64,000 bases of DNA, from positions 1 to 64,000 of IMG/VR virus record IMGVR_UViG_3300008050_000027; one strand, 5' to 3'. The translations under genes and the position numbers were made by a program. Shown piece after piece: positions 1 to 50,089 of this stretch (positions within the stretch are counted from its first letter, which is position 1; every line of letters begins with the position of its first letter). This DNA is from a virus. Under the pieces are notes generated by a model that saw only the letters and a program-made list of their open reading frames with translations, made no database searches and was not told the origin of the DNA.

Positions 1-455
1 CCTTTCATGTTTCCAATCAACAAACAATGAAGTCTAAATTCTTCTTTGGAAAGTTCTTTGTCATGAATCGAGAACTCCCTGTATTTAACATCCCCATTTT
101 CACAGAAAGTTTCATAAGCTGGACCATCTTCTCTGTGATATTTGTCATGAAGATAGAACTGTCTGATATAGACATTCCCATTTTCATAGAAAGATTCATA
201 AGCTGGACCATCTTCTCTGTGATATTTGTCATGAAGATAGAACTCCCTGTATTTAACATTCCCATTTTCATAGAAAGATTCATAAGCTGGACCATCTTCT
301 CTATGGTGGTTGCCATGAAGATAGAACTGTCTGGCATAAACATTCCCATTTTCATAGAAAGATTCATAAGCTGGACCATCTTCTCTATGGCGGTTGCCAT
401 GAAGATAGAACTCTCTATATTTAACATTCCCATTTTCGTAGAAAATTTCTTTCAT
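1..455 (-). CDS. HREDGPA tandem-repeat protein (C-terminus beyond window)
   Basis: This reading frame starts with ATG at 455 and stays open to the left edge (about 151 codons visible), so the gene is partial. The product is built of 28-residue repeats with the core HREDGPAYESFYENGNV followed by an aromatic/basic strand such as KYREFYLH. Five strands are visible, alternating between KYREF-type and Y(A/I)RQF-type. After the repeats comes the start of the family's C-terminal module (SKEEFRLHCLL), which is also present in the four related genes of this window. The family is seen in phages and giant viruses and resembles MORN-type beta-hairpin repeats, but has no established function. It is the last gene of a leftward cluster of four such genes. 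Confidence 0.8.
   Translation of the reverse strand, partial: MKEIFYENGNVKYREFYLHGNRHREDGPAYESFYENGNVYARQFYLHGNHHREDGPAYESFYENGNVKYREFYLHDKYHREDGPAYESFYENGNVYIRQFYLHDKYHREDGPAYETFCENGDVKYREFSIHDKELSKEEFRLHCLLIGNMK
63..440. repeat. In-frame 84-bp tandem repeats
   Basis: A near-identical 84-bp unit recurs, with its ATGAAGATAGAA landmark at 147, 231, 315 and 399 and a diverged copy at 63. The unit encodes 28 residues in the minus-strand frame. Copies alternate in type, so the higher-order period is about 168 bp, as expected from duplication of a two-unit block. Confidence 0.85.
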
Positions 456-566
456 TTTAGGCTTTTACCTGACAAAACCAATCCAGTAATACTGCTACTG
501 TATTTATTAATTATATTAATACATTAAATAACAAAGAGCACACTATAGATTAAAAGTGCTTATTAT

Positions 567-638
567 CTATTTATAGGTTTCTTTTAAAGCTTCAAAATCT
601 ATCTTAGAGTCTCCAGGCGTCTTATAACTATTATCATC
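567..638 (-). pseudogene. Chimeric gene remnant (repeat-protein segment fused to HREDGPA C-terminus)
   Basis: Directly after the stop codon of the upstream gene (639-641) the same frame continues as DDNSYKTPGDSKIDFEA followed by LKETYK and a stop at 567. The first part matches the GTTWCTA/LRV paralogs at 6692, 13315 and 60753 (DADINSYKTPGD, then after an 11-residue gap DDSKI-F-A). The end matches the ALEKTY or SLKETY terminus of the HREDGPA family. No start codon or binding site supports separate translation, so I read it as recombination debris or a C-terminal extension lost to a stop mutation. Confidence 0.55.
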
Positions 639-1079
639 TTACTTCTTTGTCATGCTAAATGTCGCCAGCCCATTGCCGACGTTCGTATATATAAAATTGA
701 CCTTCAATCTCTCAAATATGTAATTATTACATAATACATGCTTTATGTAAGTCTTTTCTAACGCATGTAAATTATTGTTTGCCAGCAAATAGATTCTATA
801 ATGCTCTACTGGCATCTTTTCGTCATTCAAGAAATAAAATTGACCGTCGATATTACCACTTGTACCGTAACATATAACAGCTGGACCATCTTCTCTGTGA
901 CGCTCGCCATCAACGGCATACTCATATCTACGTACTGCTCCGGGTTCGCGATATACTGTTATTGCAGGGCCAAGTTCATTATGCAAAACACCCTGGGGTC
1001 CTAGTGTATGCATCTCTCTTTCCACTTCACCAGAGTTGAAATAGAAGTGTGATATATGACTATCCATATGTTTTCTCAA
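639..1079 (-). CDS. HREDGPA-family protein with extended C-terminus
   Basis: The 146-residue product contains a degenerate repeat (VLHNELGPAITVYREPG) and a canonical one (GERHREDGPAVICYG), followed by the family C-terminal module (PVEHYRIYLLANNNLHALEKTY). Other members end at this ALEKTY, but here about 36 more residues follow without family resemblance, suggesting loss of the original stop. The start overlaps the preceding gene by 20 bases, so translation is probably coupled. Function unknown. Confidence 0.7.
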   Translation of the reverse strand: MRKHMDSHISHFYFNSGEVEREMHTLGPQGVLHNELGPAITVYREPGAVRRYEYAVDGERHREDGPAVICYGTSGNIDGQFYFLNDEKMPVEHYRIYLLANNNLHALEKTYIKHVLCNNYIFERLKVNFIYTNVGNGLATFSMTKK

Positions 1080-1386
1080 GTGCAGTAAAATTAGTAATTA
1101 GCAGCAAAAATACGCGAAACTCTTCCACAGAGAAGTAGTTACCTTGGATAGCGTAGAGCAATTCTTGTATGGTACCATCCTCATGATACATTATACAGGC
1201 AGGACCATCTTCCCTGTGGGCTGACCCATTCTTGTAATATTCTTCGTAATATTTGCTGCCGTCCCTATTAAATGACATATAAGCTGGCTCATCTTCTCGA
1301 TGAAGAACATCATTCATAAAATATTCACGGACACATAACTCGCCGCTAGGCCAAAGTTGATCTCTTTTAAATGATACTTCACTCAT
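1060..1386 (-). CDS. HREDGPA-family protein
   Basis: The 108-residue product has two repeats (LHREDEPAYMSFNRDG and AHREDGPACIMYHEDG) with the pattern of a basic strand, HREDGPA turn and aromatic strand, then the family C-terminal module ending FTALEKTYG. It overlaps its neighbours on both sides by 8 and 20 bases, consistent with one polycistronic message running left from the polymerase and homing-endonuclease genes. No catalytic motif, signal peptide or membrane segment is visible. Function unknown. Confidence 0.75.
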   Translation of the reverse strand: MSEVSFKRDQLWPSGELCVREYFMNDVLHREDEPAYMSFNRDGSKYYEEYYKNGSAHREDGPACIMYHEDGTIQELLYAIQGNYFSVEEFRVFLLLITNFTALEKTYG

Positions 1387-1612
1387 ATGTTTTTTCTAAC
1401 GCTTTATAATCATTTTTAACAAGTAGGTATAAGCGGTAATACTCCCTTGAGGCCAATACGCCACTCAGATAATAATCTTCATTATAGCTGTATGGACCAA
1501 AAAAAATAATTGCGGGCCCGTCTTCTCTATGAAGATGCCCATTATTCAAAATATACTTACATAAAAAAACTTTACCAGAAGCATACTTTTCAATATGTTT
1601 AGTTGATTTCAT
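1379..1612 (-). CDS. Short HREDGPA-family protein
   Basis: This 77-residue protein contains a single HREDGPAIIFFG repeat followed directly by the C-terminal module (SREYYRLYLLVKNDYKALEKTYE). It looks like the minimal unit of the family: one repeat plus the conserved end. Its start overlaps the stop of the homing-endonuclease gene by four bases (ATGA type). That coupling places the HREDGPA cluster downstream of a mobile element. Function unknown. Confidence 0.7.
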   Translation of the reverse strand: MKSTKHIEKYASGKVFLCKYILNNGHLHREDGPAIIFFGPYSYNEDYYLSGVLASREYYRLYLLVKNDYKALEKTYE

Positions 1613-3204
1613 AATTCTAATACATATTTAGAGTTTTTGCAACCCCAAATCTTAGAAACACCGGCGGCCCTAGCAACTTCTTTTTCTGGCACTCCATCTC
1701 GTGCTTTATATTTCGTTCTATTATACCGATGATTAAAGTCTGTCCACCAAAATCGTGCAACGGTTTTTTTATCAAAAATTAAACCTGCTTTGTCGTATGC
1801 ATGTGTATACCCAAATCTATCATCTGCGTATGAGATTATACGGGTATATTTCTCTTTTTTTGCCCACTTAATAGCAGCGCTAATAAGCTTAGACATTCCA
1901 CCGATGACAAAAGTCCCTTTTTTAAAGGCTAGTCTAGCAATTTCAATTTCGTGTGTATCAACGCTAAACACTTTTCTTCTTAGAGTTAAGGCGCCTAATA
2001 TTTCTCCATTCATCGACAATGATATTGCATGCTTAAATTTTACATTGCCGTCTAAATGGTTTTCATTCATAAACTGACTTGCTTGCTGCCTTGAGCAATC
2101 CTGTAATAAACACTTTCTAGCAAAATATCTTCTCGACATACCTAAATTATGTGAAATCATTGACTCAACTATTGAACGTTTGTCTCGCCATTCATCTTCG
2201 AAAATATGCAGTAATCTAATTCCTTGTTCTGAGCACATTTCCGTTTTTTGCTGATGTGATATGCATATCGCACCAGCTTTTTCTGAGTGCCAGTATAAAC
2301 CATTAAATTCTATTCCGAATTTGAACTCTGGAATAAAAACGTCTATTTCCTTAGGCTGAATTATTTCTCTGGTTGAGAATGCTTTGACACCTAAACTTTT
2401 TACGAATGTAAGAACCTCTTCTTGTGCTTTTGACGTCTTCCTAGGCGGAAAACAGATATAACATTGGCTGCCTTCATCTAAAGCTTTTAACGTCTTTCTT
2501 TGTAAAGTTTTGCACTTGATACACTCTACCTCAAGATGAGATTGATATGATTTATAGTCAAGCGTTGATGTCACTAGTTTAAAATCTTTTTCTCTTTTCT
2601 TTACCCTCTTTTCAATCTCATCTTGAGGCAGAAGTAATGAGGTTGATAACTTTATCAGCCGAGAGTCAGTATATTTTGTTAAACCCTTCGACCAAACTCC
2701 CCCATTTTTTTTGATGCCTTCTTTTACAGCAATGGATATTTTCTTTAGCCTTGGGTCTGTATACTTTGTTAAGCCCTTCGACCAAGAGGGCCCTTTAGAA
2801 AGATCATCATACGGGCCAGGAGTTTTTGGCTTTTTTGTCAATGCTCTAGCTTCGCTTATCTTTAAACAAGTCTCTTTTCTAATTTCCGGGTTATGTGCCC
2901 AATGCTTACCATCAAGCTGTGCTTTAGAGATAGACGCGCCTCGTAATTTTATTCTTTCATCATTATCTTTCGTTAAGCCCTCTTGCCATTTTCCCCTATG
3001 AGCTGGGCAGTATTTTTGATACCCACGTGAATTGCCTCTAAATTTTGGCTTATTAGAGCAAGAATCATAATCACATACTGGCGCTAAGCCGCCAAGCTTA
3101 ATTAAAACATACGACTCTTCACGGTTTATTGAATGTGTCCGTGCCAAATGTGTCGTTAAGCCGTTATAATTCTTAAACTCTCTATCGCATTTAGGGCATT
3201 TCAT
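1609..3204 (-). CDS. Free-standing homing endonuclease, Vsr/EDxHD-like
   Basis: The 531-residue protein begins with a C2H2-like zinc motif (CPKC with HLARTH), then a Cys-rich segment and three W-(S/Q)-(K/E)-GLTK-(T/N)-D-R repeats typical of DNA-recognition linkers in phage homing enzymes. A further Cys-pair zinc motif precedes a nuclease core with KEIDVFIPEFKFGIEFNGL, YWHSE and HIFEDEW, the acidic and histidine positions expected of a Vsr-type fold. The C-terminal part (RFWWTDFNHRYNR, then GAGVSKIWGC-like end) is shared with the second copy at 48456-50089. Its ATG overlaps the stop of the truncated Pol III alpha gene, which suggests it splits or invaded that gene. Specificity cannot be told from sequence. 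Confidence 0.8.
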   Translation of the reverse strand: MKCPKCDREFKNYNGLTTHLARTHSINREESYVLIKLGGLAPVCDYDSCSNKPKFRGNSRGYQKYCPAHRGKWQEGLTKDNDERIKLRGASISKAQLDGKHWAHNPEIRKETCLKISEARALTKKPKTPGPYDDLSKGPSWSKGLTKYTDPRLKKISIAVKEGIKKNGGVWSKGLTKYTDSRLIKLSTSLLLPQDEIEKRVKKREKDFKLVTSTLDYKSYQSHLEVECIKCKTLQRKTLKALDEGSQCYICFPPRKTSKAQEEVLTFVKSLGVKAFSTREIIQPKEIDVFIPEFKFGIEFNGLYWHSEKAGAICISHQQKTEMCSEQGIRLLHIFEDEWRDKRSIVESMISHNLGMSRRYFARKCLLQDCSRQQASQFMNENHLDGNVKFKHAISLSMNGEILGALTLRRKVFSVDTHEIEIARLAFKKGTFVIGGMSKLISAAIKWAKKEKYTRIISYADDRFGYTHAYDKAGLIFDKKTVARFWWTDFNHRYNRTKYKARDGVPEKEVARAAGVSKIWGCKNSKYVLEL

Positions 3205-5384
3205 ATTATTTCTATCGGTAACTTAATATCATCATCTTCATTGAGCAGCTTAGCCATTTTTAATTGACCATTGGTTAATCTTAGTTTTTGAAAAGAAAAT
3301 ACTTCTGTTACTGTACCATCATTAAATTCAAGCTCTAACTTATCATTTCCGCAGCGTTGAAGTATTAACTCTATACATCTCTGGATTATTCGTAACGTCT
3401 CTAGACCAAGCAAGTCAAATTTCACCCATCCAAGAGACTCAAGATGTTTGAAATGCATTCCCTCAACCCAAGGTGTTTGAGGTTCTTTTTTCGAAAGGAT
3501 AACAGGCATTTGCTCTGGAACATTCTCAGAAACAATAACACCTCCAGCATGCTTTCCTAGTGCTTTATTCTCCTTAAAAAGATTCTTAATTGGTTCACCA
3601 ACATGAGGGTACTTTTCAATAAACTCTCTAAATGGTTTACAATATTTGATGCCATCATCAAACTTAAGCTGGAATAAGTTCTTGTCATCACCCTGGCGTA
3701 GTACAGCTTTTCTTACATCATTGTCTAGCGTTTTTGTAGCTATATTAACTTCATCGAATGAAATTCCAAAGAACCTAGAAATATCCTTGATAAGTGATTT
3801 AAGTTGGAATGTATTGTAGTTTGAAATGGGAATAACATTCCTGTCACCAAATTTATCTTTAAGCAAGCCAATGAGCAAGTCACGATTGCCGACGTCTGAG
3901 TCGATATCTGGCATGCCTTGGCGGAATTTTGAAATAAATCTTTCAAAAATCAAGTCATACTTCAAGGGATCAATTTGTGTAATACCAAGGACATAATTAA
4001 CTAATGAACCTGCACCAGAGCCTCGACCACACCCTACGAGCATGTGCTCTGCAGCTATATCCATAATCGCTTTCATAGTCAAGAAGTATTCACAAAAATC
4101 ACGCTCTGTAATCGTCTCTAGCTCGAAAAGCAACCTTTCTTCGTAATCGCTTTTGCCAGCTAGACCCATTTTCTGCATGCCAATATTGCATAGATCACTT
4201 AATGCAGCGGCCGGTGTTGTATCTTTTGGTACAACATACGATGGCAATTTTATTCTCGTATCTGGCTCCACTGCTTCTATTTGATTGAATGCAATATCGT
4301 GTGTTCTTTCGATAGCATCAGCTACTAGTTGATCATCATACCAAGAAAACTCTTTTGGTGAGCGCTTGTATTCATCCCACATCTGGGACGCGTTCTTTGG
4401 GTACAACTCGCACTTTAAGTCCTCCACACTCTTAGGTATCTGTGTAGGATCAATTTCAGCGTAATTTAGCCACCCCAACTTCTTATAAATTTCCCTATCT
4501 TTCCATACTTCTGGTTTATAGTAGTGTGAATCAGCAGTTGCTATAAGAGGAATTCCTGTCTTTTTAGAAAGCTCCATCAGCATTCTATTGACAAGGTGTT
4601 GCGGCCCAAGCTTATTAAATTGTAATTCTAGATAAAAGTTTTCTTCGCCGACTGCATCAACGAGCCTATCAACAGAATTTTCTAACTTTTGTAGAACCTT
4701 GCTGCGGATATTATTGTCATCGACTAAGCTTGGTATAAGCTCTTCAAATGAGGCACTAGGAAACTCTGAAAATATATCATACGCTAGAGGGCCACCTATA
4801 CATGCTGTGGACACGACAAAGTCACCCTTGCACGCCTTAAGCATTGAAAGATCAATCCTAGGAAACCTATAGAAGCCCTCTAAATATCCTCTAGAGACTG
4901 TCTTGAATAAACTGGTAAGGCCCTTAGACGTCTTTGCCAGTACGACAAGGTGGTGCCGTCTCTTAATAGGGTCATAAAATTTTGAGAATTTTGATTCGTC
5001 TTCATTCTCGACCGTCGAACCATGTTGATTCTCATTCTTCAGCTTTTTCCCAGATTTTTTCTTTGTTTCATCAGAAGCTTGCTTCTGACGGCGCCATTCA
5101 TCGAGATCTGGATGCATATAAACTTCGCATCCAGGAATGAACTTAAAATTTCGGCCTTGCTTTTCTAAATCTTTTGCAAAAAGATACGCATGAGCGTAAC
5201 TATTCATGTGGCCATGGTTTGTTATCGCAAGAGCGCTACGATGAGCTTCCTCTTTTGTATTTTCTAGTACAAAGTTAAAGTGCTCTTGGGGTAAGCCCAT
5301 GCCATCGAAAGTCGAAAACCCATCATGAGCATGTAAGCCAACGAATTTTGTCGGTTTCAACACAATATTACTTTTCTCTTTCAT
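3201..5384 (-). CDS. dnaE: DNA polymerase III alpha subunit, N-terminal part (PHP and palm)
   Basis: The 727-residue product starts with a PHP domain (GLHAHDGFSTFDG, ITNHGHM) and continues into the family C palm with GCGRGSGAGS and the catalytic PDIDSD; it also has GKHAGGVIVSE and VKFDLLGL, the segment that carries the third catalytic acid in bacterial DnaE. Bacterial alpha subunits run to about 1100-1200 residues, so the rest of the fingers, the clamp-binding region and the OB domain are absent. The last 45 or so residues (from about 680) have no DnaE counterpart and look like a Hint-domain strand pattern. The stop overlaps the homing-endonuclease start. A C-terminal half would be expected further left, outside this window. 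Confidence 0.85.
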   Translation of the reverse strand: MKEKSNIVLKPTKFVGLHAHDGFSTFDGMGLPQEHFNFVLENTKEEAHRSALAITNHGHMNSYAHAYLFAKDLEKQGRNFKFIPGCEVYMHPDLDEWRRQKQASDETKKKSGKKLKNENQHGSTVENEDESKFSKFYDPIKRRHHLVVLAKTSKGLTSLFKTVSRGYLEGFYRFPRIDLSMLKACKGDFVVSTACIGGPLAYDIFSEFPSASFEELIPSLVDDNNIRSKVLQKLENSVDRLVDAVGEENFYLELQFNKLGPQHLVNRMLMELSKKTGIPLIATADSHYYKPEVWKDREIYKKLGWLNYAEIDPTQIPKSVEDLKCELYPKNASQMWDEYKRSPKEFSWYDDQLVADAIERTHDIAFNQIEAVEPDTRIKLPSYVVPKDTTPAAALSDLCNIGMQKMGLAGKSDYEERLLFELETITERDFCEYFLTMKAIMDIAAEHMLVGCGRGSGAGSLVNYVLGITQIDPLKYDLIFERFISKFRQGMPDIDSDVGNRDLLIGLLKDKFGDRNVIPISNYNTFQLKSLIKDISRFFGISFDEVNIATKTLDNDVRKAVLRQGDDKNLFQLKFDDGIKYCKPFREFIEKYPHVGEPIKNLFKENKALGKHAGGVIVSENVPEQMPVILSKKEPQTPWVEGMHFKHLESLGWVKFDLLGLETLRIIQRCIELILQRCGNDKLELEFNDGTVTEVFSFQKLRLTNGQLKMAKLLNEDDDIKLPIEII

Positions 5385-5404
5385 ATATTTTTTCTATGTA
5401 GTTG

Positions 5405-5557
5405 CTATCGATTTTTTTCTAAATCGAATGTTAAGTTTAAAATGGCAACCGCAAGTATATTCGCGGTGTGAGGTGTAATATTTATATTATCGAACAGCAA
5501 CATTGCTATGTTAGACTTGTATGCTTCATGTAAACCTTCATCACTAATGAGATACAC
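5405..5557 (-). CDS. Small hypothetical protein upstream of dnaE
   Basis: This 50-residue frame (VYLISDEGLHEAYKSN at its start) fills the gap between the nucleotidyltransferase gene and dnaE. I chose the GTG at 5557 because AAGGAG lies about 8 bases upstream. The same frame stays open upstream to the previous stop without an ATG. Composition looks coding (balanced acidic and aliphatic residues) and the stop lies 20 bases before the dnaE ATG. A competing ATG-led frame from the overlapping ATGA yields only 28 residues. Function unknown. Confidence 0.45.
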   Translation of the reverse strand: MYLISDEGLHEAYKSNIAMLLFDNINITPHTANILAVAILNLTFDLEKNR

Positions 5558-5588
5558 CCCATCAGTCTCCTTATTAATGAAAAGGAGT

Positions 5589-6632
5589 TCATCTTATTGT
5601 ATCCACAATTCGTGTAATGAACTCATCTGAGATATCAGTTGGTACACTTTTTGTTGTTACTGTCCAAATTTTATTTCCCTGATCTGTCCTTCCGTTTGAT
5701 TTTATAACAACATTATAGCTTGTAACACCCTTTTTTATTACTTCAACCAATGCGCCAGGTACGATCGTGTATAAACCCCTCTTCCTGCGATCAATCTCAC
5801 CGTTGATTAGATCTACTGGAGGTGGCATAGGGGCTCCCTCTTTCCTAAAGGCATAACTGCCCTCGTTTTCGACTGTAAATTTGCCAGCAAGTCTAGCCAA
5901 TTCTTCGTCAGACAACACACCTGGCCCGAACTTCATCAAGCCAGCTGCACAATATGACGATGGCTTTTTTTGTGTTTCACTGTGGAGCCAGTTAACCAAA
6001 TGAGCGCGCGTGTTCTTCTCAATCGTCTTATATCCATACTTCACGAAATACTTTTTTATGCGATTTGGAAAATAATTTCCAGGCCGGAGTGCTTTTAGTG
6101 TCTTTGATTTTTCTAATGCTTGTTGCTCAGGATGAATGTACGCATTATGCAGCGTGAATCCCACCATGCAATTGACAAAGTCAAAGTTTTTGAGCATTGT
6201 CACTGGATTTCCAAACTTTGATTTTATTACCTGTATCGTCATCCTTGGCCTACCTGGCATGTTTATTGTTGTTTGCTTGGCATGCTTTCCGTGCGTCTCA
6301 GACCAACGTAGACGGCGACTGCTGCCACCGTATATTATATACGACGGCAGCTCACTATACTGGATTTTGACTGCGAACTTCTCTAGACTTTCTACTACGG
6401 CTTTTACTTGGTTCTCGTCATAGCAGAAAACATCTAAATCACCGCCCTTAAGAAAATGCGTAAACACACACTTAGTAGAACCATCATTTAAAAGCTTTCG
6501 TATAAATCCACCAGCGACATAAGCACCAGCGTCTAAAATATAGTGAAGAGGAAAATATCTGTCTTCTACTAATTTTTTTAGGCCATCAACTTTTGAATAT
6601 AACCACTCAATGTCATGTTTCTCAATAATCAT
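5589..6632 (-). CDS. Polymerase-beta-fold nucleotidyltransferase-like protein
   Basis: The 347-residue product carries the signature of the nucleotidyltransferase fold: AGGFIRKLL followed by a GGDLDVF motif, where the two aspartates would bind metal. This resembles tRNA CCA-adding and other poly(A)-polymerase-like enzymes at the active site only; the rest is not recognised. The C-terminal third (GLYTIVPGALVEVIKKG) looks like a small beta domain. A second, unrelated nucleotidyltransferase lies at 23924-24880. Substrate unknown. It sits at the head of the dnaE transcript segment. Confidence 0.6.
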   Translation of the reverse strand: MIIEKHDIEWLYSKVDGLKKLVEDRYFPLHYILDAGAYVAGGFIRKLLNDGSTKCVFTHFLKGGDLDVFCYDENQVKAVVESLEKFAVKIQYSELPSYIIYGGSSRRLRWSETHGKHAKQTTINMPGRPRMTIQVIKSKFGNPVTMLKNFDFVNCMVGFTLHNAYIHPEQQALEKSKTLKALRPGNYFPNRIKKYFVKYGYKTIEKNTRAHLVNWLHSETQKKPSSYCAAGLMKFGPGVLSDEELARLAGKFTVENEGSYAFRKEGAPMPPPVDLINGEIDRRKRGLYTIVPGALVEVIKKGVTSYNVVIKSNGRTDQGNKIWTVTTKSVPTDISDEFITRIVDTIR

Positions 6633-6650
6633 TAAGAAATTATATAAAAT

Positions 6651-6670
6651 ATGGGATTTTTAATTCCCAT
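6651..6670. terminator. Short hairpin between repeat-protein and nucleotidyltransferase genes
   Basis: ATGGGA pairs with TCCCAT across an AT-rich loop. On the minus strand it follows the stop of the gene at 6692 and is followed by ATATTTTAT. The stem is only six base pairs, so termination is a weak inference. Confidence 0.3.
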
Positions 6671-6691
6671 TATTGTGACAAACTTTGTTTA

Positions 6692-8053
6692 CTATTTCTC
6701 CCAGCTGCGAGTTATTTTATTATATTTTCTTTTAGCCAACCTTCTATTGTTAAAATTCTCATCATCAAACATACTAGCCAGTATTTCAGGTGTAACATCC
6801 GCGCTACGTATGACATGCCGTCGGATCTTTGGCACTTCATCTTTTGAAAACTTGACAAGGATTTCATGAGGGAGTCTTTTTCTGCCGGCGAGTTCCAACC
6901 TTACAAAATCGTCCCCGGCATCTGCGAGTCGCATTAGAGTGCTATCTGACGTCGACCTATGCCGTACGACGGCACCCATTACACGGAAAAAACTGTCATC
7001 TGCCAGCTTATCAAGCATATCAGGTGTTGCATCTGCGTGCCGAGCTACCATCATCCGGTCGCTGTCATTTTTGCTCAAAACAAGTTTCTCCAACTTTGCC
7101 ATAGATATACTTTTAGCGTAAGACTTAACGTCATCTGATAGTTTATAATCTGCGGCATTGGTAAGCATAGACATACTATACCCGCCGCCATCCTCATAGC
7201 GATCATTAATCTGATTAAGCAAGCTAAAGTATGGTGCCGGGCGTAATCCCTTAACAAGCTTTTTAAATCTAGGAACCGACTTCACAGCTTTTTTAATCTC
7301 AACTAGGGCCGGATGTTCTTTTATTTTTGCCGCATGACGTTCGATCGCCGCAAGCATCTCTTTATGCTCATCACCGAATGCATCACTAAACTCGAATTTA
7401 TTGTTATCTTGATCGACTGTTATATCATTTTGGTTAGGCATCCTGATTTTTCCATATACTACGCCAATTGACCACTTTTTACTCTCGTCATGTTTGTCAA
7501 GAATATAGTAAAGAATAACATCATTAGTTATTATGTAACTATAGAATAAATTCTCACCCTTGGTTCTTGCAGTGCACCATGTCGTGCCGCGCCCAAGCGC
7601 GCACGAAGCATTCACGCTTCTTGGCATCAGAATGACAAAATTGTCTGATTCATAAACCTTATCAGCATCGCCAGATGCTGCCTTGAAACCTATCTTAGAG
7701 TCATCAGGAAGCTCTTCAAGCTTCCGGTGTAGATCCCCAGGGGTCTTATAGGAATTAATATCAGCGTCTTTACCTTTAAGTTTCTGTCTATTTTTAGCAT
7801 CATCAAATGATATGACCAAGGGAGAAATATCTCTTAAGGGTTCATTATTTGAACGTGAAACACGTTCAAGCCATGTAAGATATTGCTTTAGTTTGGCTTG
7901 CGGTAGAACTTGAAGCTTTTCAAATGCTTCATCCCACTCTTCCGGTGACCTACTAGATTTTTCCTTAATATTATCGATGACACCTTCGTGAAGAAGTCGT
8001 TCATTGAAGCATTTTGAAATAGCTTCACGAAGGTGTTTTATCTTTACAAGCAT
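6692..8053 (-). CDS. GTTWCTA-domain protein with HEAT/LRV-type repeats, paralog 1
   Basis: The 453-residue protein has three parts. Residues 1-30 form a leader (MLVKIKHLREAIS to RLLHEG) that ends in LxE-G, like a T4 prohead-protease site. About residues 35-240 are a domain conserved in all three paralogs, with PEEWDEAFEKLQVLPQAK, DADINSYKTPGDLH and ALGRGTTWCTARTKGENLF. The rest is a set of roughly 24-residue helical repeats (ATPDMLDKLADDSFFRV type) resembling leucine-rich variant/HEAT repeats. I do not recognise the GTTWCTA domain's activity; its invariant Trp-Cys-Thr might be structural or catalytic. Packaging in the capsid is an inference from the leader. Confidence 0.7.
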   Translation of the reverse strand: MLVKIKHLREAISKCFNERLLHEGVIDNIKEKSSRSPEEWDEAFEKLQVLPQAKLKQYLTWLERVSRSNNEPLRDISPLVISFDDAKNRQKLKGKDADINSYKTPGDLHRKLEELPDDSKIGFKAASGDADKVYESDNFVILMPRSVNASCALGRGTTWCTARTKGENLFYSYIITNDVILYYILDKHDESKKWSIGVVYGKIRMPNQNDITVDQDNNKFEFSDAFGDEHKEMLAAIERHAAKIKEHPALVEIKKAVKSVPRFKKLVKGLRPAPYFSLLNQINDRYEDGGGYSMSMLTNAADYKLSDDVKSYAKSISMAKLEKLVLSKNDSDRMMVARHADATPDMLDKLADDSFFRVMGAVVRHRSTSDSTLMRLADAGDDFVRLELAGRKRLPHEILVKFSKDEVPKIRRHVIRSADVTPEILASMFDDENFNNRRLAKRKYNKITRSWEK

Positions 8054-8079
8054 TAAAGATAATTATAGGTTATATGTCA

Positions 8080-8454
8080 TTAATACCCGTCAGAAATTCT
8101 TCTGTGTAAAACAGTGTCTTTCCGTTTATACGCTTCAAAGAATTCATCAGGTGTGATACCGACGAAGATAAGAATTTCTAAAAAATATTTGTATGCATCA
8201 ACAAGTTCTTCTAAAAACTTGTCTTTATCAAACTCAATAACGTGCGTTTTTCTATGTGTCTTTGAGTTCTTTAACTCCTGTACAGCCTCGAATAGTTCAC
8301 CCATGCTATTAAATGCTAAATTTTTACACTCAATTTGACTTTGCTTTGCTGAAATATCTAATGGCCACTCTGGAAAATTCTCATGTTTTTCCTTGAGTCT
8401 TTCCATAAACTTTTCTTGCAAAGAAAACATCTGTTCTAGTTTGTCAGTCGTCAA
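8080..8454 (-). CDS. All-alpha NTP pyrophosphatase (dUTPase-2/MazG-like)
   Basis: This 124-residue protein is predicted all-helical with the pattern of the dimeric dUTPase/MazG superfamily: an N-terminal LEQMFSLQEKFMERL helix, GELFEAVQELK with acidic metal-binding positions, and FLEELVDAYKYFLEILIFVGI, which corresponds to the EExxD helix. It would hydrolyse a (d)NTP to the monophosphate. The window also has a trimeric dUTPase at 19719, so its substrate may be another nucleotide. It is translationally coupled by an ATGA overlap to the gene upstream. Confidence 0.65.
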   Translation of the reverse strand: MTTDKLEQMFSLQEKFMERLKEKHENFPEWPLDISAKQSQIECKNLAFNSMGELFEAVQELKNSKTHRKTHVIEFDKDKFLEELVDAYKYFLEILIFVGITPDEFFEAYKRKDTVLHRRISDGY

Positions 8455-8720
8455 TGTAAGCTCGTTTCACTATCATCATCCATGCTCATCATATCTTCAA
8501 GATGATCAAACATGGCTTCGACGTCTTTTGCGTCTTTTTCCATGTACTCTGGCGTCAATACAAGTGTACCAGCACCCTCACTGGGCTCTAATACTAAGAG
8601 CCTAAAATGATCTGAGATGTCGGTTCCAGTCATTAGCCCAACTTGCACAAGTTTCACGATTTGTGCAATTACGCTATCATCAAGTCTAAAAATCCGTCTG
8701 TCCATATTCTGTGTATCCAT
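8451..8720 (-). CDS. Conserved phage hypothetical protein
   Basis: The 89-residue protein has IFRLDDSVIAQIVKLVQVGL and TGTDISDHFRLLVLE, a pattern I associate with small conserved proteins of T4-like phages, and an acidic C-terminal tail (DDDSET). No enzyme motif is visible. Its stop overlaps the start of the MazG-like gene by four bases, so the two are probably co-translated. Function unknown. Confidence 0.65.
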   Translation of the reverse strand: MDTQNMDRRIFRLDDSVIAQIVKLVQVGLMTGTDISDHFRLLVLEPSEGAGTLVLTPEYMEKDAKDVEAMFDHLEDMMSMDDDSETSLH

Positions 8721-8761
8721 AATTTGTAATATACGTAACCCTACAGTGAATGTTTAAAACT

Positions 8762-9223
8762 TTAAGCGTCTATAAAAAAAGCCAATGGCTTTTCGCCGCG
8801 AGCCGATCGCAATAACGTTATCATATCTTTTCTAGGCACGATTGCTGTCGACACATCATCTATATTATGGCAAACAAACGATGTACCTTGCATTTCGCTA
8901 ATAAACGTATAATGGCTTAACACTTCTTGCGCACCTTCATCATACCAGTAGTATGTTAATATACAAGAACTTCCAGCCCTGATTCTATCATCTAGGTCTT
9001 GAATTTTAGTTGGTGCATCTGGTGTTACTGTCAAACGTTTATATGAGCTTATAGCATTAAGAACATCTATAGGCCAAGCACCTTCAGATACATTATACTT
9101 ACATTTTTTTGCTAACCTCTTATATGAATTCTTCATTGTAAACTTAAAGCCCGCCCACTTAAGTGCATTTAATACTGCTATTGGACCACATGATGTGTTA
9201 TTACGCTGTTTTACATATCTCAT
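8762..9223 (-). CDS. C39-like cysteine peptidase
   Basis: The 153-residue protein opens with KQRNNTSCGPIAVLNALKWAG, the Gln and SCGP cysteine motif of C39-type papain-like peptidases. The expected histidine follows in SHYTFIS and an acidic partner in HNIDD. The length equals a single peptidase domain with no transporter or signal peptide, so it would act in the host cytoplasm or in the virion. Substrate unknown. It lies between nucleotide-metabolism genes, without overlap. Confidence 0.7.
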   Translation of the reverse strand: MRYVKQRNNTSCGPIAVLNALKWAGFKFTMKNSYKRLAKKCKYNVSEGAWPIDVLNAISSYKRLTVTPDAPTKIQDLDDRIRAGSSCILTYYWYDEGAQEVLSHYTFISEMQGTSFVCHNIDDVSTAIVPRKDMITLLRSARGEKPLAFFIDA

Positions 9224-26445: not shown

Positions 26446-27078
26446 TTAAAAAATTGCCTTTGCTGGGCTCAATACTGATTCTCTCGATTTTTCGCATTGT
26501 GTGGCCCATCTATCAGCATAATGAACTAATAATGCAAGCCGAGGTTCCTTCATACCATATGGCTTATTTTCAGGTACATATTGACCATCATTTAATAAGA
26601 TTCCAAGATATTCTTCCTGTGTCAGCTTCACCCCAAATTGACTCATCGTCCACAATCCCAGCTGTGCATTTGGCATTGTATTACCTGGACCAGGAAGGTA
26701 CATCATTCCACGTTCACGATGCCAATCTGATTTTTGCTCGACGTAATAATCTTCGCCATCATTTATGCCGCCTACTTTGCCCCAGTCATGAAAAAGTGAA
26801 GAAACAAGAAGCGACTCTTTGTCAATTTTTGCACTAGCAGCAACAGCAAACTTGATAGTATATTCAGCAACTCGTAATGAGTGATCAATAAACCCACCCA
26901 CAAAAGCATTATGGAACTCTATTCTTGATGAAGCTGGAGCAACTGCTGCCCTTTCTCCCATTTTTTCCAACATAGCCATGATAGGCTCTGTTTTTGAGCC
27001 AAGTTCTTTACAGTACGACTCAAATGTATTCCAGTTTGATTCAATTTTTGCCATTACGGCATCGTTATTCGATTTCAT
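26446..27078 (-). CDS. HD-domain phosphohydrolase
   Basis: The 210-residue protein has the HD-superfamily metal motifs in order: FIDHSLRVAEY, SLFHDWGK and VHYADRWA. These enzymes hydrolyse nucleotides or cyclic nucleotides. Length equals one domain. The start overlaps the family A polymerase gene by four bases, so a role in nucleotide supply or in removing signalling nucleotides is plausible. Substrate unknown. Confidence 0.75.
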   Translation of the reverse strand: MKSNNDAVMAKIESNWNTFESYCKELGSKTEPIMAMLEKMGERAAVAPASSRIEFHNAFVGGFIDHSLRVAEYTIKFAVAASAKIDKESLLVSSLFHDWGKVGGINDGEDYYVEQKSDWHRERGMMYLPGPGNTMPNAQLGLWTMSQFGVKLTQEEYLGILLNDGQYVPENKPYGMKEPRLALLVHYADRWATQCEKSRESVLSPAKAIF

Positions 27079-28298
27079 TTAAACTTGTCATGATCAACAC
27101 AAAATTCTACGTCTAAATAACGAGTTTTTGTGCACTCATTTTTTATATTATTAATATAACTCATATAGTCAGGATGTACATCTAATATTAATGCATCATG
27201 AATTATGAATATAGGGTTAACTTTTAAGTTATTAGCCCTAATAAAATCTATCGACTTTAGAAACCCTAACGCTGCGGCAATGACGGCTGAAGATTGTAGA
27301 AAATAGTTTACTAGGACTCTGGGGTCATTCTTCTTGGGTATTATCTTTCGCCCAAAGAGGTTAGTTATGTAACCTACATCAGCTAACTGCTTCTTTAATT
27401 TATCTGCTAAGACCCTAATACCGAAGTATGATATTATGCCATGGTTTGCGTCAGACAACTCAGAACCCTTTAAGCCTGATATTTGTGATAGACGTTGCTC
27501 TTGCGCACCGTATAATACAGAGATTGTCATAACTTTTGCTACGTCTCTAGTAAACTTGTTATTAAATAATGCAGCATTTATGTCTGCATAAATATCATCT
27601 GGTATATCTCGACCTGCGGCAAAAAGTGCCAATCTAGGTTCAATAGATTTATAGTCTACAGATATTACTTCCCCACCCTCATATCGTGATTTTACTATCC
27701 CGCGGTGCCTTTTTGCCAATGTCAAAATCATTGGTCCTTCTTTAACAATTAGCCTGCCAGTTACCGTTGCTGTCTGGTCATATCTAACTTTGTTAGCAAA
27801 CCCAGATGAATTTGGCTTAAACGATGAAAGCGTCGTCTTTAAGGAACTATTCGTCTCAGCCTTTATGAGCGATGATAACCTATATACATCAATCGCCGCA
27901 TGTTCTAGTTCATCCAGACACTGCGTCGTGTCCAGGAATATATCTTTATAGTAGCCACATGTATCCGATTTTAAGAGCTTCTTGACATCATGTATTAATC
28001 GTACAATAAAACTATCAAAAGCATGTTTTGGTAAACATTGTCTCCAGCTTATCGTTTTTAGTGTTTCGTCGCTCTTTAATGATGACAACATAGCACCAAA
28101 AGCAGATGATGGGGTAATATCGATGCTTGTCCCAGACAACAATGCTAATTTAGCAATATCTAGTTGTGCTGCGGGATTGCCCAGTGTCCATGAATTTTGA
28201 GGAAAGTTGGGACTCCAAGTTACCTGGCTTGTTTGAGTGTTGAAAATGAGATGCTGGTTTTCTCCCAATATATGATTCGCTATGCAAATTAATACCAC
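27075..28298 (-). CDS. polA: Family A DNA polymerase lacking an exonuclease domain
   Basis: The 407-residue protein contains only the polymerase core. TATVTGRLIVKEGP precedes motif A (VISVDYKSIEPRLALFAAG), motif B reads RDVAKVMTISVLYGAQ and motif C IIHDALILDV. Typical Pol I or phage family A enzymes have a 3'-5' exonuclease domain upstream, which is missing. In motif B the position equal to E. coli Phe762 is Ile, and motif C has HDA in place of HDE, but the catalytic aspartates are kept. The GTG start at 28298 is inside a hairpin. It probably acts in gap filling with the flap nuclease. Confidence 0.85.
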   Translation of the reverse strand: MVLICIANHILGENQHLIFNTQTSQVTWSPNFPQNSWTLGNPAAQLDIAKLALLSGTSIDITPSSAFGAMLSSLKSDETLKTISWRQCLPKHAFDSFIVRLIHDVKKLLKSDTCGYYKDIFLDTTQCLDELEHAAIDVYRLSSLIKAETNSSLKTTLSSFKPNSSGFANKVRYDQTATVTGRLIVKEGPMILTLAKRHRGIVKSRYEGGEVISVDYKSIEPRLALFAAGRDIPDDIYADINAALFNNKFTRDVAKVMTISVLYGAQEQRLSQISGLKGSELSDANHGIISYFGIRVLADKLKKQLADVGYITNLFGRKIIPKKNDPRVLVNYFLQSSAVIAAALGFLKSIDFIRANNLKVNPIFIIHDALILDVHPDYMSYINNIKNECTKTRYLDVEFCVDHDKFK

Positions 28299-44567: not shown

Positions 44568-45980
44568 TTATTTCAATCTAGCACGTTGACGAACGTCAGC
44601 GAGTGTTTGATCACTCATTAATTTTCCATCTCTAAAAACGACATTTAACATGTCAACAGCATCCGGAATCTGTAAATCATCAGTTACCGTCATATACTCT
44701 GATCCATTCGTTGGTGTAACGAATGATGGGTGTGACAATAATCTAAGGCGACCCTTTTTACTATTTTTCGAGGGCATTGTCGCCGGCCTTTTAAAAACAT
44801 CACGCTGCTGCCCATTTACGACGGCACTTGAGCACTTAAATGCAAATTGACATGTGTCTCTATTACAATCTTGTAACAAGCCGCCGCCAGAACCAAAGAC
44901 AACATTATCGAGACTATACCCTGCTTCTAGTACGGCATCAATAATTTCACTTAAGGTGCGACGATTGATGCCATCGCCCTGAATCACTCTTACTTGTGGT
45001 GGTAACATACGGTAACCTTTGTCATTGTAAGCACCCCCAAATTCAGTGTCTAAAATCCTTAGGAGGGCAGGTACGACCTTTCTGGGATCACCTGAATCTG
45101 GTCGAATGACCACCGTACCATCTCTTGCCAAGACAGCTTCCTTTAATTCTCTACCCCAAAGCCTTTTTGTCGCTTCGTATATATCCCAAGAATCAGACAC
45201 AACAGCTACTGGCCCAGTAGGAAATTGTTCTAACATATTTTTATATGCTTCTAACTCACTGGCCTCGCCCCAGCTCGTAATAGTTGAGTGCTCGGCGGCG
45301 GGAATACTAACCCCTGCCATATTATGGCCGTAGTACTCTCGTAAGAACTGGATTGCCGGAAGAGTATCTGATCCACTGAAGTTCACTAGATGTGCTGCGC
45401 CACCCATAGCTGCAGATTCCATAGATGTTGAACCTCTGCAACCAAAATCATGCAACTTATACTGTAGGCCAAGCAGATCGTCAGCAGAACGCTTAAGCCC
45501 ACTCTTAATAGCTTTCTTCATTTCCCTTGAAATGGTCGCGACCGTTGATGTATACCAGCATTGAACTAACAATGTCTCAACGTAATTGGTCAACCACCAA
45601 CACTGTGGATCTGTATTCTCCACAGTCATCATTACATTTCTTGGCTTGATTGGCATTCCCTCAGGAACTGCCTTAATTTCAATTGGCAGCCGGCCATCAT
45701 GCTTTTCTAGGATATATTCCCAGCCCTTTCTATAGAACATGTCTGAGTTGCCAAAATGATCAGCAAAGTATATTGAAGCTTCATTGATCTTTTCTTGTGT
45801 TACAACTTGACCAGCAAGATATCTCTTGATTAAATACTGTAAGCCGAAGAATACAACTTCTTCAAACTCGCCGCCCCTAGATTCAAAATAAGAATATATA
45901 TTTGATGTATTAGGAGGATATTGTTTAGCGTGTGATGCTTTGTATGAATCAGAAAGTAGGATAATATTGTCGTTGATCAT
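44568..45980 (-). CDS. nadV: Nicotinamide phosphoribosyltransferase
   Basis: The 470-residue protein matches NAMPT/NadV: an N-terminal LLSDSYKASHAKQYPP and FESRGG, LHDFGCRGSTSMESAAMGG, VRIQGDGI-like and VIRPDSGDP segments for phosphoribosyl-pyrophosphate, and a GSGGGLLQ phosphate loop. It makes nicotinamide mononucleotide (NMN) from nicotinamide. Its start overlaps the adenylyltransferase gene by four bases, forming a two-step route to NAD+. In other phages this pair restores NAD+ when host defences destroy it. Confidence 0.93.
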   Translation of the reverse strand: MINDNIILLSDSYKASHAKQYPPNTSNIYSYFESRGGEFEEVVFFGLQYLIKRYLAGQVVTQEKINEASIYFADHFGNSDMFYRKGWEYILEKHDGRLPIEIKAVPEGMPIKPRNVMMTVENTDPQCWWLTNYVETLLVQCWYTSTVATISREMKKAIKSGLKRSADDLLGLQYKLHDFGCRGSTSMESAAMGGAAHLVNFSGSDTLPAIQFLREYYGHNMAGVSIPAAEHSTITSWGEASELEAYKNMLEQFPTGPVAVVSDSWDIYEATKRLWGRELKEAVLARDGTVVIRPDSGDPRKVVPALLRILDTEFGGAYNDKGYRMLPPQVRVIQGDGINRRTLSEIIDAVLEAGYSLDNVVFGSGGGLLQDCNRDTCQFAFKCSSAVVNGQQRDVFKRPATMPSKNSKKGRLRLLSHPSFVTPTNGSEYMTVTDDLQIPDAVDMLNVVFRDGKLMSDQTLADVRQRARLK

Positions 45981-46876
45981 GGTAGGTATTCCTTTTTTAG
46001 AAAGTTGATAAGAGGTCTATGGCCCGGCATTATGCCTTCATGCGCTTTACGTAATTCGAACCATTTAACTTCACACAGATCATCACCAGCAACAGCTTCT
46101 GTATCATCTATTCTAACAGCAAAGAGTGATGTTAGTAACCCTATTTCGCCGGCTTGCTTCATCCTCCAATCACCAACGGGCGTACTCATAAGGTATTTAA
46201 AATCATCTTTAATAATATCAATTCCAGTTTCTTCTCTCAATTCTTTAGAAGCTTCACATTCAAGTGTTCTACCTTTATCAACCATTCCACCTGGCAAACG
46301 CCATTTTACTTCATTATTTTTTCTACCCAGGAGAACCATCATACCACTTGATCGAACTGTCAAGACTGCTATATCTACGCACATTTTGACATAAGGCCAT
46401 GAATTTTGCGTTGAGTAAATTATTCCAGCTCTAAAGTCTGGAGAATTTCTTACAACTTTGCCTAAGTCCTCGCGTTGTTCTGTACCACTATGGTACCTTA
46501 TCGCTGATTCTACCTTTACTGTAGTAAACCTCCCTTTGTAGTGAGATTGAAATGAATCTCTTCCACCATATAGCATGGCTTTTGATATATTGGGAATGAC
46601 AGCAGTAACAGCTGAATCTAGTTGATCGCTCCATACCTCATCTGACTGTTTGTCGTGTAAAGGTAAGAGAATAGCATCTGGATACTCAGATTGAATTGCT
46701 CTTGCCCTTGTTTGGTAATCTAAAGGATCATGCTTTGTCCCTTGGATTGGTGATACACCAATAAAAATTACTACTTTTCTATGATTTTCAAATGCCTTGT
46801 TTATAAGGAATCTGTGTCCCTCATGTAAGGACTCTACTTGGAAGCGCCCAACTATGACGCCAACATCTACACTCAT
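45977..46876 (-). CDS. nadM: Bifunctional NMN adenylyltransferase / Nudix hydrolase
   Basis: The 299-residue protein joins two domains. Residues 1-170 are a nucleotidyltransferase of the HxGH type (GRFQVESLHEGHRFLINKA, GVSPIQGTKHDP), which makes NAD+ from NMN and ATP. Residues about 175-299 hold a Nudix domain with the complete box GGMVDKGRTLECEASKELRE, followed by ETGI, which likely hydrolyses ADP-ribose. GGAGAAGTAAA precedes the ATG. It acts directly after NadV. Confidence 0.92.
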   Translation of the reverse strand: MSVDVGVIVGRFQVESLHEGHRFLINKAFENHRKVVIFIGVSPIQGTKHDPLDYQTRARAIQSEYPDAILLPLHDKQSDEVWSDQLDSAVTAVIPNISKAMLYGGRDSFQSHYKGRFTTVKVESAIRYHSGTEQREDLGKVVRNSPDFRAGIIYSTQNSWPYVKMCVDIAVLTVRSSGMMVLLGRKNNEVKWRLPGGMVDKGRTLECEASKELREETGIDIIKDDFKYLMSTPVGDWRMKQAGEIGLLTSLFAVRIDDTEAVAGDDLCEVKWFELRKAHEGIMPGHRPLINFLKKEYLP

Positions 46877-48455: not shown

Positions 48456-50089
48456 TTATGTATACTCGACAACAAGGTTTGGGCACCCATAAATTTTGAC
48501 AACACCATTAGCAGCAGCAACATCTTTTTCACTTATTCCATTTGTTGCTCTGAACTTGAATCTGTCATATCTATTAGTAAAGTCTGTCCACCAAAATCGT
48601 GGTTTTGTTTTTGCTACTATTTTATAACCTGCAGCTTTATACCCTTTCCCATTTCCGTATCTCAAATCAATATACGAGATTAACCCTACTTTTCCGTCAT
48701 TAGTAGATATTTTAAATGCACATTTTGTAAGTCTTGATAAACCTCCAACGACTGTGCAATCTTTCTTAACAGCAAACCGAGCGACTTCATAAAATTTATC
48801 ATATTTTTTGTGAAAAGCACTTCGCAAAGAAATCGCAGCCATTAATTTATCTTTATGAAATAAACCAAATGCATATTTTGCCCTTACATCTCCATCAATA
48901 TGATTATTATCAAAAAAAGCTCTGCGCTCTTTTAATTTAATTTGCTTAATATTACATTCTCTAGCCCCAATTTTAGTTGCAGACAATCCAAGTTTATACT
49001 TTAGCATACTTTCAACTATATGTCTTTTGTTCTTCCATTCATCTTCAAAAATGTGTATAAGCTGCACACCCGCAGTATTACATATGTCTGTTTTTTTCAT
49101 TGCATAATCATAATTTAAAAATCTTTCTGAGTGCCAAAATAAACCGTCGTATTCTATAGCAAGTTTTTTACCAATTAAAATGTCAACTTCTTTTGGTTTA
49201 ATTAAAGTTCTATCAGATAACGTGACATTATTTTCAAAAGATTTTATGAATTCATATAAATCAAGCTGGCCCTTCGATTCTTTTGGATTGCAATTATGAC
49301 AAACTGGTGTTGTCTCTATCGTACCTAGTGTCTTAAAGCTTGAAACATTGCAGTTTAAACATTTAAACTCAAGTTTCGTAGTGTATTTACCTCTATATAC
49401 TTCTGGTGAAGTTATTAGCTCAAATCCATGCAGTCTAGATGTACGTTGAACTAATTCTGATATCTTCATTCGGCGGCCAGCTTCTCTATGAACATACCGA
49501 TCAGAGATTTTTTTACTCATTGCTAAAACTTTCGGATCAGAAGATTTTACAAGCCCTTTATTCCACGAAGTAAGAACACCCTCCGCGTATAATCTCTTCT
49601 TTGTCTCAGATATCTTTTTTGCTGATGCTTAGCCTTGACTGGATCTTTAATTCTCCAGTCTAGTATCTCGCCCGCCTCGGCTTTTTTTGTGTATGTTTCA
49701 CTCGTCTTCTTTGCTGACTTAAACACCCTTTCATCAGTATTCTTAGTTAAACCGTCATTCCAAACTTTATATTTTCCGTCTTTATAACCTTGCGCTCTTT
49801 TGGCTATCATTTTTGCTTGTACAGTTTTATCAGCAAAACAAGAATCAATTCTTGCATTGTGTCCACGCACGTACTTTGAAAGATAACCCTTTTTCCACCC
49901 TGCCCACTTAATCGGCTCTGAGCATTCTGAAGAACATTGACAAGTTGGAACTATCCCATCTAAATACAGATCGACATATTTTGATTCGTAATCAGAAATT
50001 TCATGATCTGTATTTAGGTGGACAAGAAACCTTTTCTCTTGTTTATATTGTTTTGAGCAAATATAACAAACTATAGCTTTTTGTACCAT
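48456..50089 (-). pseudogene. Homing endonuclease (second copy) broken by a frameshift
   Basis: Two frames together give a homolog of the 1609-3204 enzyme. The first (50089 to 49547) has CYICSKQYKQEKRFLVHLN, a zinc-finger start, and one WNDGLTKNTDER repeat. The second ends at 48456 and carries another repeat (SWNKGLVKSSDPK, lying upstream of its nominal ATG at 49520), then KEVDILIGKKLAIEYDGL, FWHSE, HIFEDEW and RFWWTDFTNRYDR. Adding one A to the A6 run at 49611-49616 restores a single chain of about 544 residues. The site is not a good slippery heptamer, so an inactivating or sequencing deletion is likelier than programming. Confidence 0.75.

What the first reader, a model, noticed from the sequence alone, without database searches (positions are those of the whole stretch)
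1609..5384. Fractured DNA polymerase III alpha gene with an overlapping homing endonuclease
The dnaE frame has intact PHP and palm motifs but stops after the third palm acid; the next gene, overlapping by ATGA, is a Vsr/EDxHD-type homing endonuclease. Published environmental phage 'fractured genes' (split intein halves with a homing endonuclease between them) have this layout. The other half would lie left of the window, beyond the HREDGPA genes. If true, the replicative polymerase is assembled from two polypeptides.
Basis: partly seen in the sequence, partly recalled or inferred. Interest (0 to 1): 0.85.

Follow-up and report, generated by a model that had tools for sequence, protein, structure and literature searches.

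The report
Split phage polymerase with dead-intein tail
A phage's DNA-copying enzyme is encoded in two separate genes, and the seam carries a worn-down remnant of a protein-splicing element that can no longer splice, so the two pieces probably work as separate chains held together rather than being stitched into one.

Summary
In detail: 3201-5384(-) encodes PHP, thumb and palm of a DnaE polymerase. Homology to intact DnaE stops at residue 677, a 50-residue tail follows, and a Hef-like homing endonuclease (HEN) overlaps by ATGA. The second half is not on the 93.7-kb record, which begins at window base 1, so it is unseen here. Five related viruses are broken at the same inter-helix loop, and all five carry the second half downstream (1 to 11 kb). 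Their tails are homologous to this one. Profile tests show the tails derive from the distal part of a split-intein N-half, with no room for block A and no TxxH histidine. The second halves start with 10-15-residue leaders lacking blocks F and G, and the native loop is lost. Splicing is therefore very unlikely, although splice-competent inteins sit at other sites of the same polymerase family, even in the same gene. Catalytic residues are kept (2 of 111 invariant columns changed), so it is not a decayed gene. Best reading: a genes-in-pieces polymerase of two chains, with a dead split intein possibly reused as an assembly clip. The fracture is supported; the splicing-intein version is not. Assembly is inferred, not shown.

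The parts
3354..5384 (-). dnaE N-half body, residues 1-677: PHP, palm, thumb, up to the helix before the loop where the gene is broken
   Evidence: Pfam PHP and DNA_pol3_alpha; 46-59% identity to intact DnaE; model matches Pol III alpha structures; D493, D495, D657 kept
3201..3353 (-). Tail, residues 678-727 plus stop: degenerate remnant of the distal part of a split-intein N-half (block-B region to end), G+C 29% against 39.5% in the body
   Evidence: Leave-one-out profile rank 1 of 2285 C-termini; hhalign to canonical N-inteins P 1.3e-5 to 5.9e-5, 0 of 400 shuffles; G+C
3201..3204 (-). ATGA overlap of the dnaE stop and the HEN start (translational coupling inferred)
   Evidence: Sequence
1609..3204 (-). 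Hef-like homing endonuclease, 531 aa
   Evidence: PHROG 3339 E 7e-74; weak zf-C2H2 and GNAT/Mom-like matches; free-standing relatives in many phages
3..1612 (-). HREDGPA/MORN-like repeat genes following the HEN; the record's left end lies inside them; the unseen C-half is expected beyond
   Evidence: ORFs; MORN_2 E 3e-9; in relatives the gap between the halves is 1 to 11 kb

Best explanation
The replicative DnaE gene has been broken into two genes at the loop between the last palm helix and the fingers. Shown: the N-half is complete up to the loop and conserved; it ends in a tail homologous to the distal part of a split-intein N-half; the same break with homologous tails and a separate C-half occurs in five related viruses; none of the splicing motifs remains on the halves seen. 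Inferred: an ancestral fractured gene held a split intein plus a HEN, the intein lost its catalytic parts, and the two polypeptides now assemble without a peptide bond; the retained tail, with the short leader of the C-half, probably serves as a dimerisation clip beside the natural palm/fingers interface. In this virus the C-half lies beyond the record's left end.
For: Same-site fractures with both halves in L061, L074, L080, L142 and L160. Five of six tails are found as rank 1 of 2285 C-termini by a profile of the other five, and the best non-tail hits are always true split N-inteins. hhalign of tails to canonical N-inteins: score 29.6 against a shuffle maximum of 14.5 (400 shuffles) and a DnaE-window maximum of 11.8. 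Leaders of L074 and L160 resemble the first strand of C-inteins. No block A, TxxH, F or G. Conservation kept: 2 of 111 invariant columns changed. Break falls in an inter-helix loop of an intact relative. Precedent for active two-chain split phage enzymes: NrdA of Aeh1, gp43 of phage 25 (PMC2988022).
Against: The window's own C-half is unseen. The AlphaFold model of the lone N-half gives the tail no confident fold (pLDDT below 50). The leaders of L061, L080 and L142 are not recognisably intein-like, and the L061 tail is a weak member (rank 11). No binding or activity data; a clip role is not shown.
Confidence: 0.66

Rival explanations
1. Classic fractured gene: the tail is a working split-intein N-half and the two DnaE halves are joined by trans-splicing.
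For: HEN next to a broken replication gene; tail homologous to N-inteins; a cysteine (C678) at the junction of the window's tail; the same family has live split inteins at other sites.
Against: No room for block A; TxxH absent in all six tails; the junction Cys is not conserved; no blocks F/G and no terminal HN in five C-halves; native loop residues missing, so splicing would leave a deletion. Canonical inteins at other sites all hit Pfam Intein_splicing, the tails do not.
Confidence: 0.05
2. Two-chain polymerase in which the tails are passive leftovers: the halves associate through the large palm/fingers interface alone.
For: Tail has no confident fold alone; leaders are divergent; L061 tail is weakly conserved.
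Against: Homologous tails persist in five of six long-diverged lineages with stops at the same place and a conserved hydrophobic pattern; L061 keeps a tail although its HEN is gone.
Confidence: 0.2
3. Decayed dnaE: the break inactivated the gene and another polymerase (the PolA-family gene at 27075-28298) copies the genome.
For: C-half absent from the record; a PolA-family gene is present.
Against: 727 open codons with all catalytic residues and 109 of 111 invariant columns intact on a long branch; relatives keep complete C-halves; the record is an incomplete linear contig.
Confidence: 0.06
4. Intron or mRNA-level joining: the HEN sits in a group I intron or the two exons are trans-spliced.
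For: EDxHD HENs also occur in group I introns (own knowledge).
Against: No Rfam match up to E 1 in window 1-9000; the tail is a conserved protein family in six viruses; C-halves have their own start codons and lie up to 10.9 kb away with many genes between.
Confidence: 0.02

Closest known systems
Fractured genes: split intein plus free-standing HEN (Dassa et al. 2009, doi 10.1093/nar/gkp095; text not held, known from citations and memory)
   Same: Replication enzyme gene broken in two, Vsr-like HEN after the N-half, intein-derived sequence at the seam
   Different: Splicing motifs are gone on both sides; native loop residues lost; HEN absent in L061
Genes-in-pieces ribonucleotide reductase NrdA-a/NrdA-b of phage Aeh1 (Friedrich et al. 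2007, described in PMC2988022 and PMC3653736; a later report of essential tails is from memory)
   Same: HEN insertion leaves two active chains with extra residues at the new ends and no splicing
   Different: Different enzyme; Aeh1 tails show no significant likeness to these tails or to inteins; here the tails are intein-derived and recur in several viruses
Split T4-type polymerase gp43A/gp43B of Aeromonas phage 25 (PMC2988022)
   Same: Phage replicative polymerase made of two chains that co-purify and are active
   Different: Family B polymerase, not Pol III alpha; no intein remnant reported there
Hef-like homing endonucleases (PHROG 3339)
   Same: The HEN belongs here by profile and domain order
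   Different: Coupled by ATGA to a polymerase N-half rather than placed between nrd genes

Membership tests
Fractured gene with active split intein | Conserved enzyme gene broken into two frames | tested here: met
   N-half in the window; both halves in five same-site relatives. Second half not seen in the window's own record.
Fractured gene with active split intein | Free-standing HEN gene after the N-half | tested here: met
   Window, L074, L080, L142, L160, all PHROG 3339 group; not L061
Fractured gene with active split intein | N-intein block A with Cys/Ser 1 and block B TxxH | tested here: not met
   Tails of 42-50 residues align only to the distal part of N-inteins; no TxxH
Fractured gene with active split intein | C-intein blocks F and G ending HN before Cys/Ser/Thr | tested here: not met
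   Five relatives' C-halves have 10-15-residue leaders without them; the window's C-half is unseen
Genes-in-pieces (Aeh1 NrdA type) | Enzyme encoded as two chains with no intron or active intein at the break | tested here: met
   No Rfam match; no splicing motifs; second chain seen in relatives only
Genes-in-pieces (Aeh1 NrdA type) | New end sequences (tails) on both chains at the break | tested here: met
   N-half tails in six viruses, C-half leaders in five
Genes-in-pieces (Aeh1 NrdA type) | The two chains assemble into an active enzyme without ligation | not testable with these tools
   Needs protein expression; only catalytic-residue conservation was tested
Hef-like EDxHD homing endonuclease | Profile membership and domain order (zinc finger, nuclease, GNAT/Mom-like end) | tested here: met
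   PHROG 3339 E 7e-74, PHROG 1384 Mom-like E 2e-9, weak Pfam zf-C2H2 and GNAT
Hef-like EDxHD homing endonuclease | Site-specific DNA cleavage near its insertion site | not testable with these tools
   Needs a cleavage assay

The most novel reading that the evidence does not exclude
Split inteins can die as splicing enzymes yet survive as non-covalent clips: the distal N-intein strands plus the first C-intein strand are kept to hold two halves of an essential enzyme together, so that a fractured gene becomes a permanent two-subunit polymerase that is scattered among large phages together with homing endonucleases.
Probability: 0.48. Interest if true: 0.78.

Novelty: new variant of a known kind. 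Interest (0 to 1): 0.62.

Why it matters
It links two known phenomena, the fractured genes that splice and the genes-in-pieces that do not, by a plausible intermediate: a split intein that lost its chemistry but stayed at the seam. The same DnaE family holds live inteins at other sites as built-in controls, so the role of the tail can be tested directly. As far as I could find in the held literature, no Pol III-type replicative polymerase whose catalytic core is split between two chains without splicing has been described. It could also supply small natural heterodimer clips.

Tried and rejected
Second half on the same record: none with PHROG 405, with alignment A6 or by tblastn of relatives' C-termini. 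Sister viruses through a pattern from the tail: no hit. Group I intron: no Rfam match. Tail against the PDB by sequence: no match alone, only chance-like hits as a profile. Tail against annotated phages by tblastn: none. Canonical block-B profile against all C-termini: the tails rank only 17-185 of 2285, so the likeness is seen from the tail side and by profile-profile comparison, not by a plain intein search. Bacterial genomes: three relatives, all reaching a normal C-terminus. Aeh1 NrdA tails as relatives of these tails: not significant. One single origin of the fracture: the tree needs at least five changes of state across supported branches, but branches are long and the formal one-clade test did not finish. 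L013's overlapping frames look like a frameshift, not a fracture.

Full report
What is in the sequence. The minus-strand frame 3201-5384 (727 aa) holds the PHP domain and the Pol III alpha catalytic region (Pfam E 3.5e-21 and 5.7e-53) but matches only positions 39-638 of the 1190-position PHROG 405 polymerase profile. The palm acids D493, D495 and D657 and the PHP ligands are present. A 531-aa Hef-like homing endonuclease (HEN) starts inside the dnaE stop (ATGA, 3201-3204). Downstream lie four HREDGPA-repeat genes, in which the record's left end falls. The window is bases 1-64000 of a 93,669-base linear IMG/VR record.

Where the gene breaks. Eighty IMG/VR relatives align to about residue 677 (the best 59% identical); most of them then continue with some 520 more DnaE residues, while the window continues with 50 unrelated ones. 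In an AlphaFold model of an intact relative (L008) the break falls in the loop between helix 677-693 and helix 701-711. In the window's N-half the corresponding helix ends at 677; the body is well predicted and matches Pol III alpha structures, while the tail (682-727) has pLDDT below 50, so the model says nothing on the tail's fold.

The break recurs. Five other viruses are broken at the same loop: L061, L074, L080, L142 and L160. All five have the second half downstream on the same strand: 983 to 2905 nt away in L061, L074, L080 and L160 and 10.9 kb away in the virus of L142. Four of the five carry a HEN of the same PHROG 3339 group after the N-half; L061 has three unrelated frames and no HEN, so the break persists without the endonuclease. 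On a tree of 92 N-half bodies the fractured state needs at least five changes across supported branches: it is scattered among intact polymerases, by transfer or repeated loss. Long end branches make exact placements unsure.

What the tail is. A profile of five tails finds the sixth as rank 1 of 2285 open-frame C-termini in five of six cases (the window: 25.0 bits, E 1.5e-6; the exception is L061, rank 11). In every case the best non-tail hits are the true split N-inteins L042 and L386, which sit at another DnaE site. Tail profile against canonical N-intein profile gives P 1.3e-5 to 5.9e-5, aligned to columns 54-96 of about 102, that is from before block B to the end; none of 400 column shuffles and none of 126 DnaE-body windows comes near. 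The C-half leaders of L074 (MPKITSIKKV) and L160 (MSKITSITKV) resemble the first strand of C-inteins (ranks 4 and 8 of 2618 N-termini); the leaders of L061, L080 and L142 are not distinguishable.

Why it should not splice. The tails have no room for block A, no conserved first residue and no TxxH histidine. The five C-halves lack blocks F and G and the terminal HN. About 5-8 residues of the native loop are missing on comparing the halves with intact relatives. As controls, the same DnaE family has full split or cis inteins at four other sites (STA|C, ERFLNPHR|C, PTYG|C, GYGFN|S or C), and all 11 tested hit Pfam Intein_splicing and solved inteins. The polymerases of L080 and L142 carry one in the same gene as the dead seam, and L160 carries two in cis. 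None of the six tails hits that family.

Is it alive. The window polymerase changes 2 of 111 columns that are invariant in intact relatives, the other fractured ones 2 to 8. A decayed gene is unlikely although the virus also has a PolA-family gene. That the halves assemble is inference, supported by precedent: split NrdA of phage Aeh1 and split gp43 of Aeromonas phage 25 are active as two chains (PMC2988022). That the tail acts as a clip is a further inference.

Known kinds. In layout and descent this is a fractured gene in the sense of Dassa et al. 2009 (cited in PMC6892783 and others; paper not held), but it fails the tests for an active split intein. In mode of action it is like the genes-in-pieces enzymes, whose tails in Aeh1 do not look related. 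I therefore call it a new variant of a known kind.

Verdict. Observation confirmed; interpretation partly supported. The window's own C-half remains to be found.

Noticed in passing
48456-49520 (-): A second free-standing Hef-like HEN (PHROG 3339 E 4e-68; weak Pfam Mom and REase_MTES_1575) elsewhere in the same genome.
   Followed up: no
3-1612 (-): Four tandem HREDGPA/MORN-like repeat genes; the record's left end lies inside them, so repeats may have broken the assembly there.
   Followed up: no
27075-28298 (-): A 407-aa PolA-family polymerase gene beside virion structural genes, so this virus encodes two polymerase families.
   Followed up: partly
44568-46876 (-): Apparent NAD salvage pair: nicotinamide phosphoribosyltransferase and a nucleotidyltransferase/NUDIX protein.
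   Followed up: no
L313 3704-9672; L187; L215; L042; L076; L095; L165; L315: This phage DnaE family is riddled with canonical split inteins at four sites; L313 has the polymerase in three pieces through two of them, and in L187 and L215 the break separates parts of the palm active site.
   Followed up: partly
L080 12117-15527; L399/L400 (virus of L142): The C-half of a dead-seam polymerase is itself broken again by a canonical split intein at GYGFN, so DnaE is encoded in three genes.
   Followed up: partly
L013 6971-10593: DnaE in two overlapping frames without intein or endonuclease, probably a frameshift or sequencing error.
   Followed up: no
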